This document shows, in pieces, positions 1,822 to 9,112 of a stretch of DNA of 42,841 bases; positions within the stretch are counted from its first letter, which is position 1; the number at the start of each line of letters is the position of its first letter. Made by a program: the position numbers and the translations under genes. Source of the stretch: Acidobacteriota bacterium (GTDB lineage: Bacteria > Aquificota > Aquificia > Aquificales > Aquificaceae); contig RFFP01000021.1 in the NCBI GenBank assembly GCA_003696155.1, positions 1 to 42,841 of the forward strand, read 5' to 3'. Under the pieces are notes generated by a model, which was given only the letters and a program-made list of their open reading frames with translations, was not told the origin of the DNA and did no database searches.

Positions 1822-4358
1822 TAGGGCTTCTTAACAAGGGCTTTCACCTTTTCCTTTATCTCTGACAGCTTCAGAAGAGCCTGAAGGGGTGTAAGGTTCA
1901 GAAGGTCAAGCTCTAAAATCTCCTCAAGTAGTGCCCTTTCCTCTTCTTTTACGCTTTCTTGATAGGTCTTTTCAAGAATGGGTAGCTGGTGGTTCAACTC
2001 AAGAGTTTTTAGAACCTCTTCCGCTCTCCTTATTATCTCCTCGGGAAGGCCTACCTTCTGGGCCACCCTTATGCCAAAGCTACCCTCCGCAGGACCAGGT
2101 TTTAGAGTGTACAGAAAGTTTATATCCTTGCCCTCCTTTGAGACAGCCATATGGTAGGTCCTTATCTGGCTATAGTGGTTAGAAAGGTCGGTGAGCTCTA
2201 AGTAATGGGTTGCTATGAGGGTTCTTGCCCTTAACTTCTTTACTATGTACTCCACTATGGCTTTACTTATAGCTATACCATCGTAGGTGGATGTGCCCCT
2301 ACCCACCTCGTCAAGGACTATAAGGCTTCCCTCGTCGGCGTTGTTCAGTATGGCGCTGACCTCAAGCATCTCGTTCATAAAGGTGGAGATACCAAGAGCC
2401 AGTATGTCTCCAGATCCTACCCTTGCGTGTATAGAGGATACAAGTCCAATGGTTGCCCTTTTGCAGGGAAGAAAAGAGCCCATATGTGCAAGAAGGGTAA
2501 GCAAGGCCACCTGTCTTATGTAGCTGGACTTTCCAGCCATGTTGGGTCCAGTTATTATGAGCAGTAAGTTCTCCTCGTCCATGTGGGTAGGGTTGGGAGC
2601 GTAGGTCTTCACAAACTCCTCTATTGTAGGATGTCTACCCTCCTCCACATAGAGCAATTTATCTTCCACGATTTCCGGCTTTGTCCAGCCCTTTTCAGAG
2701 GCTATCTGAGCCAAAGACTGAAGGTAGTCCAAAAAACCTATGAGCCTTGCATTTTCTGCCACGTCCGCAAGGGCATCTACTACCTTCCCCCTCAGGGAAA
2801 GAAAAATTTCGTACTCTATGTTGTTTATCTTCGTCTGGGATGAGAGAATCCTGTCTTCAAGGTTTTGCAGTTCATCGGTTATGAACCTCTCGGCGTTGCT
2901 CAGGGTCTGCCTTCTTCTAAAGTGGGGGGGCACGTGCTTGAGGTTTGCCTTGGTTACTTCTATGTAGTAGCCCATGACCTTGTTGTAGCCAACCTTTAAG
3001 CTCTGTATGCCCGTCTCCCTCCTAATCTTCTCTTCGTAGTCTTGCAAGAGCTGTTGAGCTTTGTCTCTGTATGCGCGGAGCTCATCCAAAAGTGGGTCCA
3101 CACCATCCCTTATAAGCCCACCGTCCTTTACACTTATAGGTGGCTCCTCCACCAAAACCCTGTCTATTTCCTCGTATAGCTCCCTCAGGTTCCTTAGTTG
3201 GCTACCTATGCCTTTGAGGGCATCCGCTGAGGCTACATCCAAAACCTTCTTTAGGTTTTGAATGCGTAAAAGAGCATGCTTTAAGAGTATAAAGTCCCTG
3301 GGTGTGGAAAGACTGCCACTTATCCTACTTACCAACCTATCAAGGTCTGCTATGTGTTTTAACTCCTCCCTTATGGCTTCCAACAGTCTTTGTCTGTTCT
3401 TGAGCTCCTCCACAGCAAGCTGAACTTTCAGTATGGTAGCCTTGTCTCTAAAGGGATGGAGTAGATGAAACCTAAGCCTCCTTCTTCCCATACCCGTGCA
3501 CGTCCTGTCTATGACCTTAAAGAGGGAGAGATCTTCCCTACCATCGTAGGACTCAAGGAGCTCTAAACCCCTCCTTGTTCTGTAGTCTATCCTGAGGTAA
3601 CCCTCGTGGCTGTAAGGTTTGGGTCTTCTTACAAAAGGTGTAAAGGATTTCTGGGTTCTCTTCAGATACAGATACAGCCCTCCAAAGACCAGAAGGTCCT
3701 TATCCTCAAAGCCCAAGGCTATAGGGTTGTATATGTTCATGTCATACATGAGCTCTTTTGCGCCTTCCTCAAAGAACTCCCAGTTTAGCCCACTTACGTA
3801 TGCGTTCAACTCTTTAAGATCAAGGTCTAAATCTTTGGGAATTAGTATCTCTTTAGGTGAAAACCTAAGGAGAAACTCCTTAGCACCTTGCAGGTCAAAC
3901 CTACCACCTACAAGCTCGCCCGTTGCAGGGTTCAGATAGGCACACAGATATTGGCTTTTTATTCTTAGCACACCACCCAGACCGCAGAGTTCCTTTTCAA
4001 AGTATGTACCTGGCGTTATAACCCTTACGACCTCCCTCCTTACCAATCCCTTAGCCTGGCTTGGGTCCTCCACCTGCTCGCATATGGCTACCTTGTAACC
4101 CTTGGATACAAGCTTGCTTATGTAGGAGCTTGCCGAATGGTATGGCACACCGCACATGGGTATGCGCTCCCTATCCTTGCCAGCAGGCCTTGAGGTCAGG
4201 ACAAGTCCAAGCTCTTTGGAACCTATATGGGCATCCTCGTAAAAAAGCTCGTAAAAGTCCCCAAGCCTAAAGAAGAGAAGGCTATCCGCATACTCCCTCT
4301 TAAAGTGGTGGTACTGGGCGAGCATGGGCGTAAGGTCTTCATTTGGCGTATTCCACAT
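1821..4358 (-). CDS. mutS: DNA mismatch repair ATPase MutS
   Basis: 845 residues, full length for bacterial MutS. It binds base mismatches and small loops as a dimer and starts repair. The mismatch-wedge Phe-x-Glu motif is F35-Y36-E37 in GDFYELF. After the connector, lever and clamp domains the ATPase domain carries Walker A GPNMAGKSS at 604-612 and the Walker B/signature LDEVGRGTSTYDG near 676, followed by a His switch in ATHYLEL. The C-terminal helical tail is present. The start codon lies 20 nt inside the 3' end of rny, so the two genes are translationally linked. The stop overlaps tRNA-Gly by one base on the other strand. No mutL is present in the window. Confidence 0.98.
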   Translation of the reverse strand: MWNTPNEDLTPMLAQYHHFKREYADSLLFFRLGDFYELFYEDAHIGSKELGLVLTSRPAGKDRERIPMCGVPYHSASSYISKLVSKGYKVAICEQVEDPSQAKGLVRREVVRVITPGTYFEKELCGLGGVLRIKSQYLCAYLNPATGELVGGRFDLQGAKEFLLRFSPKEILIPKDLDLDLKELNAYVSGLNWEFFEEGAKELMYDMNIYNPIALGFEDKDLLVFGGLYLYLKRTQKSFTPFVRRPKPYSHEGYLRIDYRTRRGLELLESYDGREDLSLFKVIDRTCTGMGRRRLRFHLLHPFRDKATILKVQLAVEELKNRQRLLEAIREELKHIADLDRLVSRISGSLSTPRDFILLKHALLRIQNLKKVLDVASADALKGIGSQLRNLRELYEEIDRVLVEEPPISVKDGGLIRDGVDPLLDELRAYRDKAQQLLQDYEEKIRRETGIQSLKVGYNKVMGYYIEVTKANLKHVPPHFRRRQTLSNAERFITDELQNLEDRILSSQTKINNIEYEIFLSLRGKVVDALADVAENARLIGFLDYLQSLAQIASEKGWTKPEIVEDKLLYVEEGRHPTIEEFVKTYAPNPTHMDEENLLLIITGPNMAGKSSYIRQVALLTLLAHMGSFLPCKRATIGLVSSIHARVGSGDILALGISTFMNEMLEVSAILNNADEGSLIVLDEVGRGTSTYDGIAISKAIVEYIVKKLRARTLIATHYLELTDLSNHYSQIRTYHMAVSKEGKDINFLYTLKPGPAEGSFGIRVAQKVGLPEEIIRRAEEVLKTLELNHQLPILEKTYQESVKEEERALLEEILELDLLNLTPLQALLKLSEIKEKVKALVKKP

Positions 4359-6048
4359 GCCTCGTCTCCCTGATGACCACCACCTTTATCTGACCTGGAA
4401 ACTGCATCTCCTCCTCTATCTTTCTGGCTATGTTCTTAGACAGCATATAAGCCTCTTCGTCGCTCATCTCCTCTGGGTTCACTATGACCCTTACCTCCCT
4501 ACCTGCCTGCACTGCGTAGGCGTTTTGCACCCCCTTAAAGGACTTGACTATCTCCTCAAGCTTCTCAAGCCTCTTGAGGTAAGCTTCCAGGGTCTCCCTT
4601 CTTGCTCCCGGCCTTGCCGCTGATAGCGCATCCGCTGCACACACAAGGGCAACCTCTGCATATCTGACCGGCTCTTCGTTGTGGTGCGCCCTTATGGCAT
4701 TGAGCACAGGGTCAGGCTCTCCGTAGCGCTTGCAGAGTTCAATGCCTATGTCCGTGTGTGAACCGCCCAGCTCGTGGGATATGGCTTTACCTATATCGTG
4801 CAAAAGCCCTGCCCTACGTGCCATTTTAGCATCAAGCCCAAGCTCTTCAGCCATGAGACCAGCCAGATAAGCCACCTCCTTTGAGTGTAGAAGTACGTTC
4901 TGAGAGTAGCTAGTTCTGTAGTAAAGCTTACCAATGTAGTAATAAAGCGAGGGGTTTATATCATAAAGGCTTAGTTCTATGCAGGCTTCTTCACCCGTCT
5001 TCCTGACCTTTTCATCCATCTCCTTCTTAACCTCTGAAACAACTTCCTCTATCCTCGCTGGGTGTATCCTCCCATCCTCTATAAGCCTTTCAAGAGCCTC
5101 TTTTGCAAGCTCCCTTCTCATGGGGTCAAAAGAGGATATGGTGACCACATCGGGGGTGTCATCTATTATCAGGTCCACACCAGTTAGGAGTTCAAAGGTC
5201 CTTATGTTTCTTCCCTCCCTACCTATTATCCTACCCTTGAACTCGTTGCTGGGAAGCTCTACCGTGGTGGTGGTGTAGTTTATGGCTATCTCCGGGGATA
5301 GTCTTTGGACCGCTGTGGTTATTATCTTCTTAGCTTCAAACTCCGCCCTTTCTTTTGCCTCCTCCTCTATTCTCTTCATTATCTTTAACCCTTCCAGCCT
5401 TGCCTCCTCTTCAGCCCTTCTTAAAACCTCAAGCCTTGCCTCCTCCATTGTCAAGCTTGCTATTCTCTGCAGTTCTAAGATTTCTCTATGCCTTAGACTT
5501 TCTATCTCCTTCTCCTTATCCTCAAGGTTTCTTATCCTGCTCTGAAGTTCCCTCTGAATCTGCTCCAGTTCCTTCTCCCTCTCTCTTATGTCCCTCTCTC
5601 TCCTGTAAAGCTCCTCTTCTCTCCTTTCAAGGGCTTCGAGCCTTCTTTCTACCATTAACTCCTTCTGTTGAAGTGAATTTTCCAGCTTTTGCACCTCTTG
5701 CTTTCTCTCCGCAAGATAGGACTCGGTTTCTCTCCTCTTTATCTCAAGGTCCTGTCTTAGCTTTTCCGCCTCTTCCTTTATAGTGTTCCTTATCCTGTCA
5801 GCCTCTTCCTGTGCAAGCTTTATAATTCGCTCGGCCTCCTTCTCCGCAGTAGACTTTATCTCTTTTCCCTCCTCTAGGGCTTTTCCAACTATTTCCTGCG
5901 CATCTCTCAGGGCTTGAGCCCTTATCTCTTCCAGGTCCACCGCAGGTTGGGTGGGAACCCCTTGGACCTTTTTCCTAGTAAGAAGTAGATAGCCTACAAC
6001 AAAAAGCAGTGCTACTACGCTTATCCCTAAAAGGAGCTCCAAGTTCAT
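4339..6048 (-). CDS. rny: Ribonuclease Y
   Basis: 569 residues. RNase Y is a membrane-anchored endoribonuclease that initiates mRNA decay. The N-terminus is a single transmembrane helix (about residues 3-24, ending in TRKK). A very long Glu/Arg-rich coiled coil follows (about 40-250), then a KH domain with IGREGRN, and the HD phosphohydrolase domain with LLHDIGK (H417, D418). It is about 50 residues longer than the Bacillus enzyme, the extra length being in the coiled coil. The ATG overlaps the fthC stop as ATGA, and its 3' end overlaps the mutS start by 20 nt, so fthC-rny-mutS form one translationally coupled leftward unit. Confidence 0.97.
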   Translation of the reverse strand: MNLELLLGISVVALLFVVGYLLLTRKKVQGVPTQPAVDLEEIRAQALRDAQEIVGKALEEGKEIKSTAEKEAERIIKLAQEEADRIRNTIKEEAEKLRQDLEIKRRETESYLAERKQEVQKLENSLQQKELMVERRLEALERREEELYRRERDIREREKELEQIQRELQSRIRNLEDKEKEIESLRHREILELQRIASLTMEEARLEVLRRAEEEARLEGLKIMKRIEEEAKERAEFEAKKIITTAVQRLSPEIAINYTTTTVELPSNEFKGRIIGREGRNIRTFELLTGVDLIIDDTPDVVTISSFDPMRRELAKEALERLIEDGRIHPARIEEVVSEVKKEMDEKVRKTGEEACIELSLYDINPSLYYYIGKLYYRTSYSQNVLLHSKEVAYLAGLMAEELGLDAKMARRAGLLHDIGKAISHELGGSHTDIGIELCKRYGEPDPVLNAIRAHHNEEPVRYAEVALVCAADALSAARPGARRETLEAYLKRLEKLEEIVKSFKGVQNAYAVQAGREVRVIVNPEEMSDEEAYMLSKNIARKIEEEMQFPGQIKVVVIRETRHVEYAK

Positions 6049-6605
6049 GACACCTTACCTCCATATATGTTTTCTTCTGTTACCACCATGTCTACAGGTC
6101 TGTCCCAGCTATCCCTTGGCACCTCGTCCACCACCTGAAATTCGTAAGCTACGCCCACCTTTAGGCCACCGAGCCTATCCATGAGCCTGTCATAATAGCC
6201 CCTGCCAAAGCCAAGGCGATAGCCTTTCTTATCAAAGACAACCCCGGGTATGAGGGAGAGCTCAACGCTCTCCGGGTTTACCTCTTCACCTTCTGTGGGT
6301 TCGAGAATGCAGAAGGACCCAGGCTCAAGCCCTTGGGTATCAATGACCTTTATAAGCCTGAGCTCTTCTCCTTCCACCCTTGGAAGGATAACGTCCTTTC
6401 CCTCACCTATGGCCCATTTAAAGAGGGGTGTTATGTCCGGTTCGCCCTTATGGGGACAGAAAAGTAGGATCCTTTTTGCCCTTCTTAGAGCCTTCAAGGA
6501 TAGAAGCCTATTTACTATAAGCTCTGAAAGCTTCTCCCTTTTCCCTTCCTCTAAACCCTCCCTTGTCTTAAGGTAGGACCTCCTTAGCTTTTCTTTTAAC
6601 CTCAT
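6045..6605 (-). CDS. fthC: 5-formyltetrahydrofolate cyclo-ligase
   Basis: 186 residues from ATG 6605. It converts 5-formyl-THF to 5,10-methenyl-THF using ATP. Family signatures are the basic N-terminus MRLKEKLRRSYLKTRE, the DITPLF segment, and the C-terminal glycine/tyrosine motif YRLGFGRGYYDRLMDR. I chose this start over an in-frame ATG 36 nt upstream because a perfect AAGGAGG (6618-6612) lies 6 nt before it; the extra residues do not look like this family. It lies directly downstream of the 6S-like RNA, an arrangement (ssrS-ygfA) known from many bacteria. The stop overlaps rny as ATGA. Confidence 0.95.
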   Translation of the reverse strand: MRLKEKLRRSYLKTREGLEEGKREKLSELIVNRLLSLKALRRAKRILLFCPHKGEPDITPLFKWAIGEGKDVILPRVEGEELRLIKVIDTQGLEPGSFCILEPTEGEEVNPESVELSLIPGVVFDKKGYRLGFGRGYYDRLMDRLGGLKVGVAYEFQVVDEVPRDSWDRPVDMVVTEENIYGGKVS

Positions 6606-6632
6606 CTTCCACCTCCTTTGTAAGTAAGGAGG
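6606..6632 (-). promoter_or_regulatory. Shine-Dalgarno and possible sequestering hairpin of fthC
   Basis: On the minus strand CCTCCTT (6632-6626) is a perfect 7-bp complement of the fthC ribosome-binding site AAGGAGG (6618-6612), with a 7-nt loop between them. The SD is 6 nt from ATG 6605. If the hairpin forms, it hides the SD. Whether it does so in vivo is inference. Confidence 0.5.
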
Positions 6633-6645
6633 GGAAGGCAAGACA

Positions 6646-6803
6646 CCCGCCCATGCCGTGGTAGGAAGAAGCCTCCGGTGGGCCCCAAAGACTAAAGGTG
6701 GGTGTCCTCCCGGAACGCCTATCAGACAGCCCCGGAGACCGGACTCCCTATCGCCTCACCATGTGGACCCCAATTTAAGCTCCTTCTCCACGTACAGGGC
6801 AGG
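6646..6803 (-). ncRNA. ssrS: Probable 6S RNA (RNA polymerase regulator)
   Basis: About 160 nt without a credible ORF between pheT and fthC. The RNA read leftward folds as 6S does. The closing stem is CCUGCCC (6803-6797) with GGGCGGG (6652-6646), one U-G pair, then CGUGG with CCACG across a 4x4 internal loop, then AGAAG with CUUCU. A large open centre follows, then a terminal stem GGGAGUCC/GGACACCC (one A-A mismatch) capped by an irregular G/C hairpin. The 5' side of the bubble contains GAGGCGAUA, close to GAGCCGAUA in E. coli 6S RNA. The position just upstream of the 5-formyl-THF cyclo-ligase gene matches the known ssrS-ygfA linkage. A 6S RNA has been reported in Aquifex. Exact ends are uncertain; the 5' end may begin in the last codons of pheT. 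Confidence 0.72.
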
Positions 6804-6805
6804 TT

Positions 6806-9112
6806 CTATCTAAGCTTTGCGTAAAACCTGTCTTCTAGCTCCGCTATCAACTCTTCCATAGTCTGATTAACCACTTGGTCTGATAGCGTAGCCTCTTTAC
6901 TTCTAAAACTTATCCTCAAGCTTACACTCTTCTTGCCTTCCCCAAGTTTTGGATCTGTAAAAAGGCTAAAAACCCTAACCTCTTCAACCATTTCCTTGCC
7001 CTTGATATGGGATATTAATTTATCCACCCATAGACTTTTGTCTACAACCAAGGTCAGGTCCCTTATAACCGGTGGATAGTTAGATATGGGGGTGTATGTC
7101 TTCTTTACCCTTTTGAGAGTATGTAGCTTAACCTCTCCCAATATAACCCTTCCCCTAAGCTGGAGCCTGCTCTGTATGGATGGATGTAACAGGCCCACGA
7201 AAGCGATGGACTCTCCACCAGACCTGAAGGCTCTCTGTATATGCGGATGTAAAAAGCCCAGCTTGGACTTTTCCTCCTCCCACTCCTCACAGTAAAGCCT
7301 TAGTATATCCAAGACTATGGAAAGACCATCGTAGGGGCTGTAAAGTTCTTCAGGATAGAGACTTTTCTCCCCGGTCAGCAAAAATCCAAGCCTCTTCTCC
7401 TCTCCAGTAGGGCTGTAGACCTTCCCAAGTTCAAAGACACCCATGCTGTAGTTATGCCTGCGTTGGTTTTCAACGCATACTCTTAGGAGCGAAGGAACCA
7501 AGGAAGACCTCAAAAACCTCTGAGACTTTGTAAGTGGGTTTAGAATTTCCAAGGTAGGCCTCTCAAGACCCAAAATCCCATATAGCTCCTCATCCTCAAA
7601 GGAGAAGGTTATAACCTCGCTCAGACCCCTACCTATGAGGAGCCCTCTTATCTGCTCCTCTAGGCTTTCCTGGGCTTCAGCTCTCGAAGGTACAGGCAAG
7701 ACCTCACTCTTAAAGCTGTCAAGGCCCTTGACCCTCATTATCTCCTCTATAAGGTCTACGTCTTCTGACATGTCAAAACTTCTGTGACTTGGTATGTAAG
7801 CTTCCACGCCACACCTTAGCATTTTGTGGGGTATATCCAAGGCAGAAAGGGTCTTACTGACCGACTCCCTGTCAAAGTCCTCTCCCGAGTATCTTCTGAA
7901 CTTCTCAAGGCTGAGAAAGACCTTCTTGGGCAAGTAGGGCTGTGGGTAGCTGTCCCTGAGTGCGGTAAGTCTGCCTCCGGCAAGTTCCATTATGAGCTCT
8001 ATGGCCAGATCCTGAGCTAACCTTACCCCCTCTATATCCACACCCCTTTCAAACCTGTAGGAGCTGTCCGTCTGGATGGAGAGAGACCTTGCAGACCTTC
8101 TTATCCTGTAAGGTTCAAAGTAGGCAGACTCTAAAAGCACCCTCTTGGTACTTTCCAAGACACCACTTTCCAAACCTCCTATTAAACCCGCCACCGCTAT
8201 GGGGCCCCTTGAGTCCGCAATGAGGAGGTTCTTCTCTATGAGCTCCCTTTCCGAACCCATGAGGGTAAGTAGCCTCTCTCCCTCTCTTGCATCCCTTACA
8301 ACTATGGGAGGTTCTATCCTATCTAGGTCAAAGGCATGAAGAGGTTGGCCCTCTTGTAGCATTATGTAGTTGGTTATGTCCACCAAGTTGTTTATAGACC
8401 TCAATCCGCACTGCCAAAGTCTCAACCTGAGCCATAGGGGAGAGTTTTTTACCTGAACATCTTCTATTATGGCTCCTCTGTATCGCTTACAGTCAAAGGA
8501 CTCTATCCTTATGTTTAAGTGTCCAAGCTCCTCGAACTTTGGATAGCTCCTTTCCCTTCTTCTTAAACCCATAATGGCCGAGAGCTCCCTTGCAAGCCCC
8601 TTAACAGAGAGAAGGTCCCCCCTGTTGGGTGTGGGCTCTATCTCAAGAAGAAGCTCACCAAAGCCCAAGAGGTCATAAGCGGAAGTCCCCAGCTTTATAT
8701 CCTCGTGGAGCACCAGCACACCCTCTGAATGGCTCTCTAAACCGAGCTCCTTTGCAGAAAGGAGCATGCCCTCAGAGATAACGCCGTCAAACTCCCTCTT
8801 GGTTATGCACATGTTCCCAACCCTTGCGTTGGGTAGGGCAAGAAGCAAACCATCACCTACATTGAGGCTTTTGTCTGCGGAAACCACCTGCAAGTAAAGA
8901 CCTTCTCCTACTTGAACTCTATAGATGCTGAGCTCAAGCCTTGGATGGGGCTTCTTTTCTACTAACCTTCCAAAGACAACACCGTCTATATCCCTATCCC
9001 ACCTTTTGAGGCTCGCCTCTACGCTCTTGAGGGTAAGCTCCTCCGCTATAAGCTCTGGGCTTACATCTTCAAGGTATAAAAACTCAGAAAGCCAGGAGAG
9101 GGGAACTATCAT
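6806..9112 (-). CDS. pheT: Phenylalanyl-tRNA synthetase beta subunit
   Basis: 768 residues, full length. With PheS it forms the (alpha-beta)2 enzyme that charges tRNA-Phe; the beta chain supplies editing and tRNA binding. Visible domains are the N-terminal MIVPLSWLSEFL segment, an OB-fold tRNA-binding domain (about 40-150), the B3/B4 editing domain (LVDITNYIMLQEGQPLHAFD), B5, the catalytic-like core, and a C-terminal anticodon-binding FDX-ACB domain (about 675-768, starting YPPVIRDLTLVV). PheS is not next to it. A TAAAAT at 9124-9119 ends 6 nt before the ATG and there is no Shine-Dalgarno, so a leaderless transcript may start here, 12 bp after cysM. Confidence 0.98.
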   Translation of the reverse strand: MIVPLSWLSEFLYLEDVSPELIAEELTLKSVEASLKRWDRDIDGVVFGRLVEKKPHPRLELSIYRVQVGEGLYLQVVSADKSLNVGDGLLLALPNARVGNMCITKREFDGVISEGMLLSAKELGLESHSEGVLVLHEDIKLGTSAYDLLGFGELLLEIEPTPNRGDLLSVKGLARELSAIMGLRRRERSYPKFEELGHLNIRIESFDCKRYRGAIIEDVQVKNSPLWLRLRLWQCGLRSINNLVDITNYIMLQEGQPLHAFDLDRIEPPIVVRDAREGERLLTLMGSERELIEKNLLIADSRGPIAVAGLIGGLESGVLESTKRVLLESAYFEPYRIRRSARSLSIQTDSSYRFERGVDIEGVRLAQDLAIELIMELAGGRLTALRDSYPQPYLPKKVFLSLEKFRRYSGEDFDRESVSKTLSALDIPHKMLRCGVEAYIPSHRSFDMSEDVDLIEEIMRVKGLDSFKSEVLPVPSRAEAQESLEEQIRGLLIGRGLSEVITFSFEDEELYGILGLERPTLEILNPLTKSQRFLRSSLVPSLLRVCVENQRRHNYSMGVFELGKVYSPTGEEKRLGFLLTGEKSLYPEELYSPYDGLSIVLDILRLYCEEWEEEKSKLGFLHPHIQRAFRSGGESIAFVGLLHPSIQSRLQLRGRVILGEVKLHTLKRVKKTYTPISNYPPVIRDLTLVVDKSLWVDKLISHIKGKEMVEEVRVFSLFTDPKLGEGKKSVSLRISFRSKEATLSDQVVNQTMEELIAELEDRFYAKLR

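What the first reader, a model, noticed from the sequence alone, without database searches (positions are those of the whole stretch)
6646..6803. 6S RNA candidate between pheT and fthC
A 158-nt non-coding stretch folds into a closing stem, large central bubble and terminal stem, holds GAGGCGAUA in the bubble like E. coli 6S RNA, and lies upstream of the 5-formyl-THF cyclo-ligase gene as ssrS does in many bacteria. It appears to sit within a leftward operon, so processing from the pheT transcript is possible.
Basis: partly seen in the sequence, partly recalled or inferred. Interest (0 to 1): 0.5.

Follow-up and report, generated by a model that had tools for sequence, protein, structure and literature searches.

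The report
6S RNA gene between pheT and fthC
This heat-loving bacterium carries, between two ordinary genes, the gene for 6S RNA, a well-known RNA that holds back the cell's gene-reading enzyme; next to it lies a conserved small hairpin that covers the ribosome landing site of the following gene and whose purpose is not known.

Summary
Rfam RF00013 matches 6640-6808 (-) as the only hit in the genome (38.7 bits, E 1.4e-6). That is under Rfam's gathering score (46.4), but so is the locus at the published Aquifex aeolicus 6S RNA coordinates (43.8). A model built from 34 relatives outside the window's genus finds it at 122.8 bits. The rod covaries (18 of 40 pairs with two-sided changes). It follows pheT in 60 of 60 family loci and precedes fthC in 56 of 60; 21 of 21 second-family loci have both neighbours.

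Processing is plausible: published A. aeolicus data suggest mostly 5'-monophosphate ends.

Beyond the finding: a conserved hairpin (6606-6637) sequesters the fthC Shine-Dalgarno sequence, in both families with different sequences; the rny start shows no such lock. In the second family a covarying stem encloses 6S RNA and, in several genera, competes for the anti-SD arm. The RNA is a new member of a known kind; whether 6S maturation and fthC are linked is open.

The parts
6645..6805 (-). 6S RNA (limits of model R2; Rfam limits 6640-6808)
6788..6803 (-). 5' strand of the closing stem, beginning two nucleotides after the pheT stop codon
   Evidence: helix 1: 6 of 12 pairs with two-sided changes, 98.4% of cells paired
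6647..6661 (-). 3' strand of the closing stem
   Evidence: helix 1, columns 170-184 of A1
6749..6762 (-). 5' strand of the central bubble, contains GAGGCGAUA
   Evidence: unpaired columns 59-72 of the consensus
6687..6699 (-). 3' strand of the central bubble
   Evidence: unpaired columns 131-144 of the consensus
6763..6763 (-). invariant C at the bubble edge, proposed template base for a product RNA starting with G (inference)
   Evidence: invariant C46; PMC4227106 section 26 proposes that Aquificaceae product RNAs start with G
6606..6637 (-). hairpin CUUCCCCUCCU-loop-AGGAGGUGGAAG that covers the fthC Shine-Dalgarno sequence
6806..9112 (-). pheT, phenylalanyl-tRNA synthetase beta chain, directly upstream
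6045..6605 (-). fthC, 5-formyltetrahydrofolate cyclo-ligase, directly downstream (ATG start with SD)
4339..6048 (-). rny, RNase Y, next gene of the same run

Best explanation
Window 6645-6805 (-) is the 6S RNA gene of this Aquificaceae genome. The RNA is a rod with an internal bubble that imitates an open promoter, binds the housekeeping RNA polymerase holoenzyme and blocks it, and is released when the polymerase copies a short product RNA from the bubble edge (mechanism taken from the known family, not tested here). It is probably made inside a pheT-6S-fthC-rny transcript and cut out. Next to it, and separate from it, the fthC ribosome-binding site is locked in a conserved hairpin, which most likely keeps fthC translation low although the transcript must be made in large amounts to supply 6S RNA. 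Shown here: family membership by sequence and structure, covariation, synteny, the predicted hairpin and its conservation. Inferred: polymerase binding, product RNA start, cutting-out, role of the hairpin.
For: RF00013 is the single genome hit, E 1.4e-6. Model R2 from 34 relatives of other genera: 122.8 bits, E 3.3e-25. R1 (which includes the window) finds one copy in 60 of 64 family genomes, 42 of 42 of good quality. Covariation: 94.8% of 1877 cells paired, 18 of 40 pairs with two-sided changes, 150 two-sided cells against 59.9 in shuffles, 0 of 500 shuffles as high; sliding partners lowers pairing to 41-64%. pheT is directly upstream in 60 of 60 family loci and fthC downstream in 56 of 60; 21 of 21 second-family loci have both. 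The G001 hit 1219725-1219886 + lies inside the published A. aeolicus 6S RNA entry 1219679-1219903 + (PMC4227106 Table 3). In L074 6S RNA is kept although fthC is not there. In that paper the maximal 6S read counts are 382 in the library treated with 5'-monophosphate-dependent exonuclease and 1384 in the untreated one, against 5239 and 456 for SRP RNA.
Against: The match is below Rfam's gathering score (38.7 of 46.4). The energy is only mildly better than shuffles. 17 of 64 family genomes gave no RF00013 match under stricter filters, and 4 of 64 none with R1; those four are 86-89% complete. R2 does not find E. coli 6S RNA (L051) at E up to 10. One of five covariation measures, further pair types, does not exceed shuffles (248 of 500), and the structure was derived from the same alignment. 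There are no expression data for this organism.
Confidence: 0.96

Rival explanations
1. The rod is a cis-acting leader of fthC (riboswitch-like or attenuator), not a free small RNA.
For: It lies directly before fthC in 56 of 60 family loci, and the fthC Shine-Dalgarno sequence is locked in a hairpin next to it.
Against: It matches the 6S model, and no riboswitch family was listed for it. In L074 the RNA persists with a gene on the opposite strand downstream and no fthC. The A. aeolicus relative was identified as a small RNA by experiment, as stated in PMC4227106.
Confidence: 0.03
2. A 6S pseudogene or chance fold.
For: Score under the gathering threshold; energy z only -1.92.
Against: A single copy is kept in 60 of 64 genomes with compensatory changes; the window scores 122.8 bits with a model that did not include its genus.
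Confidence: 0.01
3. The SD hairpin is a 3'-end processing or exonuclease-stop signal for 6S RNA rather than a control of fthC.
For: It lies close behind the 6S 3' strand (seven nucleotides in the window); in the second family the same linker takes part in a covarying stem that encloses 6S RNA.
Against: It is centred on the Shine-Dalgarno sequence, and where fthC is gone (L074) 6S RNA is followed by a U-run, with no such hairpin seen by eye.
Confidence: 0.3

Closest known systems
Aquifex aeolicus 6S RNA (PMC4227106; the original 2005 report is not held)
   Same: Same family, same place after pheT (G001 locus L038), both below Rfam's gathering score (43.8 and 38.7 bits)
   Different: Different genus label; many stem positions differ in sequence; no expression data for the window's organism
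Escherichia coli ssrS (NC_000913.3 3055983-3056165)
   Same: RF00013 rod with bubble; followed by the 5-FTHF cyclo-ligase gene fau
   Different: zapA rather than pheT upstream; GAGCCGAUA is not at the place of window GAGGCGAUA; not found by model R2
6S RNA of Verrucomicrobia contig L151
   Same: 6S match (61 bits) about 300 nt after pheT, with an fthC-like frame further downstream
   Different: A RarA-like ATPase frame lies between 6S and the fthC-like frame (both named by eye)
fthC motif of Streptococcus (PMC11109978)
   Same: A structured leader before fthC that involves an SD-like region
   Different: Three hairpins with a small upstream frame and a terminator-like stem, Streptococcus only (passages); '6S RNA' does not occur in that text

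Membership tests
6S RNA (RF00013) | Covariance-model match | tested here: met
   38.7 bits, E 1.4e-6 genome-wide, only hit; under the curated gathering score 46.4, as is the A. aeolicus locus
6S RNA (RF00013) | Rod of closing stem, central bubble, terminal stem, supported by covariation | tested here: met
6S RNA (RF00013) | Stable RNA of about 160-200 nt, abundant late in growth | not testable with these tools
   Predicted length fits (161 nt, 169 nt); no RNA data for this organism
6S RNA (RF00013) | Binds RNA polymerase holoenzyme with the housekeeping sigma factor | not testable with these tools
   none
6S RNA (RF00013) | Template for product RNAs | not testable with these tools
   Only an invariant C at the bubble edge (6763) that fits a G start
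6S RNA (RF00013) | Neighbourhood with 5-FTHF cyclo-ligase, as in E. coli (not defining) | tested here: met
cis-regulatory leader of fthC | Found only with fthC downstream | tested here: not met
   L074 keeps 6S RNA without fthC; one locus

The most novel reading that the evidence does not exclude
In Aquificota the pheT-6S-fthC transcript is one regulated unit: maturation of 6S RNA decides whether the fthC ribosome site is open. In the second family the arm that covers the fthC Shine-Dalgarno sequence can, in several genera, instead pair with a strand right behind the pheT stop, closing a stem around 6S RNA; the two pairings exclude each other, so an uncut precursor would leave fthC open and a cut one would close it, tying one-carbon metabolism to the polymerase regulator. 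In the window's own family only the hairpin half is seen.
Probability: 0.15. Interest if true: 0.6.

Novelty: new member of a known kind. Interest (0 to 1): 0.3.

Why it matters
As a 6S RNA it is one more member of a widespread family. It also shows that Rfam's gathering score misses likely true members in this group: 16 of the 47 family genomes matched by RF00013 score below it, the A. aeolicus locus among them. Worth more is the setting: 6S RNA keeps the same two neighbours through two families, fthC is also its neighbour in E. coli, and the fthC ribosome site is predicted to be locked in the loci examined. That gives a concrete, testable handle on why 6S RNA and 5-formyl-THF cyclo-ligase stay together in distant bacteria.

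Tried and rejected
Rejected: GAGGCGAUA as a conserved 6S signature. Rejected for the window's family: a long-range stem between the end of pheT and the linker; the own-pair duplex energy (mean -20.4 kcal/mol) does not beat swapped partners (-19.9) or shuffled strands (-19.8) in 57 loci, one of them a repeat. A separate promoter for 6S RNA: the scan found one weak site, within pheT, against 3.0 expected, which is no evidence either way. pheT linkage outside Aquificota: 1 of 38 pheT loci from other phyla (L151) has a 6S match at gathering score; these 38 are a part of the 74 such loci fetched, some have short flanks, and the threshold is strict, since the Hydrogenothermaceae locus L091 gave no match either. 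The pattern CCTCCT-N3-12-AGGAGG occurs at 8 places in the genome against 1 for the reversed control; of these only fthC and one 84-aa frame have it at a start codon.

Papers: PMC4227106 was read as passages and sections 26 and 30; PMC11109978 as passages; all others were seen only in search listings. The listings and passages showed no report of the fthC SD hairpin or of the enclosing stem, but they cover only open-licence papers; the 2005 A. aeolicus report is not held and a 2015 paper on A. aeolicus 6S RNA that I recall was not looked up. Absence from print is therefore not established.

Full report
What is there. The gap between the pheT stop (6806-6808) and the fthC ATG (6603-6605) on the minus strand is about 200 nt. 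Pfam confirms pheT, 5-formyltetrahydrofolate cyclo-ligase and RNase Y in one leftward run. The strand folds as a rod with a weak centre; shuffles give z -1.92, with 7 of 200 folding as well, so folding energy alone is not decisive.

Is it 6S RNA. Rfam at gathering score lists only three tRNAs in the window. With E-values shown, RF00013 matches 6640-6808 (-) over its whole length, 38.7 bits against a gathering score of 46.4; over the whole genome this is the only match, E 1.4e-6. Among 64 genomes of the family, 47 match RF00013 and 31 of them pass the gathering score. The relative G001 matches at 1219725-1219886 + with 43.8 bits, inside the published A. aeolicus 6S RNA entry 1219679-1219903 + (PMC4227106 Table 3); its contig length of 1551335 fits the A. 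aeolicus chromosome as I recall it. So a 6S RNA that was found by experiment in this group also falls below Rfam's line.

Independent model. A model from all 47 loci (R1, includes the window) finds one copy in 60 of 64 family genomes and in 42 of 42 of good quality; two of the 60 are fragments at contig ends, and the four misses are genomes 86-89% complete. A second model from the 34 of these 47 loci that lie outside the window's genus (R2) finds window 6645-6805 (-) at 122.8 bits, E 3.3e-25, and all 12 loci tested of a second family at 41-56 bits, but not E. coli 6S RNA at E up to 10. The opposite strand scores 15.9 bits, as one expects for a nearly self-complementary rod.

Covariation. On the 47-sequence alignment the consensus has 40 pairs, 18 with two-sided changes. 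94.8% of 1877 cells pair; 150 cells have two-sided changes against 59.9 in shuffles; 0 of 500 shuffles reach the pairing percentage, the number of two-sided pairs or cells, or the covariation score; the number of further pair types does not differ (248 of 500). Sliding partners by 1-3 columns lowers pairing to 41-64%. The structure came from this alignment, which favours it.

Neighbours. pheT lies directly upstream in 60 of 60 family loci (47; 13 more, L064-L076). fthC follows in 56 of 60: in L047, L064 and L076 the contig ends, and in L074 a frame that reads like hisF (by eye) lies on the other strand, while 6S RNA is kept, overlapping the last bases of pheT and followed by a U-run. L077 repeats L026 and is not counted. 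In the second family, the 21 genomes with an RF00013 match (genomes without a match are not all listed there) have both pheT and fthC in 21 of 21 loci. E. coli has zapA-ssrS-fau. Of 38 pheT loci from other phyla scanned, out of 74 fetched, one (L151, Verrucomicrobia) has a 6S match shortly after pheT, with an fthC-like frame further on.

The E. coli segment GAGCCGAUA aligns with Rfam consensus GAgCCgAaa, opposite window GGUCCACAU; window GAGGCGAUA begins 12 positions further along, next to the terminal stem. Only 2 of 47 family members have GAGGCGAUA. The conserved element is GGGGYCYACA. If Aquificaceae product RNAs start with G, as PMC4227106 proposes, the invariant C at 6763 is the likeliest template base; this is inference.

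How it is made. In A. aeolicus the maximal read counts at 6S are 382 in the library treated with 5'-monophosphate-dependent exonuclease (33,697 reads) and 1384 in the untreated one (25,816 reads), the reverse of SRP RNA (5239 and 456) (PMC4227106). That points to mostly 5'-monophosphate ends, so to cutting from a longer transcript, in that species; it is my reading of the table, not a statement of the paper that I saw. In the window the first stem base follows the pheT stop after two nucleotides, so a promoter of its own would have to lie in pheT; the promoter scan is uninformative.

A second element. Between 6S RNA and fthC a hairpin covers the fthC Shine-Dalgarno sequence: window 6606-6637, CUUCCCCUCCU-loop-AGGAGGUGGAAG. 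In 69 loci of both families (one a repeat) the mean pairing probability of the SD is 0.99, with 67 at 0.9 or more and two at 0.80; the rny SD in 44 of the same loci has a mean of 0.46 and 1 at 0.9 or more. The comparison is not fully even: fthC starts had to have GGAGG or AGGAG, while rny starts could have any of five motifs, weaker ones included. Of 14 other window genes with a recognisable SD, 3 reach 0.9 (starts chosen mechanically). All 56 family loci with fthC have CCTCC-loop-GGAGG; 43 of 56 have the full CUUCCCCUCC/GGAGGYGGAAG; 19 of 21 second-family loci have a different solution, CCUUCC/GGGAGG. Different sequences forming the same lock in two families speak for selection on the pairing. 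The window's hairpin is computed to weaken from -17.9 kcal/mol at 37 C to -5.4 at 75 C and -0.3 at 95 C, so an effect of temperature cannot be excluded. The simplest reading is that it holds fthC translation down on a transcript that must be abundant for 6S RNA.

In the second family a further stem encloses 6S RNA: a strand right after the pheT stop pairs with the linker before the SD (for example GGAAGG...CGCGG with CCGCG...CCUUCC, and in another genus GCUGAAAAAGUG with CACUUUUUUAGC). Its duplex energy in 21 loci averages -28.3 kcal/mol, against -21.1 for swapped partners and -12.1 for shuffled strands; in the window's own family, tested with the last 60 bases of pheT, there is no such excess (-20.4, -19.9, -19.8; 57 loci, one a repeat). 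Where the strand is GGAAGG it competes with the SD for the same CCUUCC. This would make precursor stem and SD lock exclude each other, but nothing here shows that the cell uses this.

Verdict. A genuine 6S RNA, new member of a known kind; the finding itself is ordinary. The conserved SD lock and, in the second family, the competing enclosing stem are the parts worth a bench test.

Noticed in passing
window 6606-6637 (-): Conserved hairpin sequestering the fthC Shine-Dalgarno sequence, in both families with different sequences.
   Followed up: yes
L052-L063, L166-L174, around 6S RNA: Covarying stem enclosing 6S RNA, from just after the pheT stop to just before the fthC SD; in several genera it competes with the SD hairpin.
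   Followed up: partly
L074 1500-2500: 6S RNA overlapping the last bases of pheT, without fthC downstream; the 6S 3' strand is followed by a U-run that looks like a terminator.
   Followed up: partly
window 6637-6642 (-): CUUGCC after 6S RNA, present in 50 of 56 family loci, resembles the 6S 5' strand CCUGCC and could pair with the 6S 3' strand; purpose unknown.
   Followed up: no
L151 2501-7502: Verrucomicrobia contig with pheT, 6S RNA, a RarA-like frame and an fthC-like frame in one run, hinting at an old neighbourhood.
   Followed up: partly
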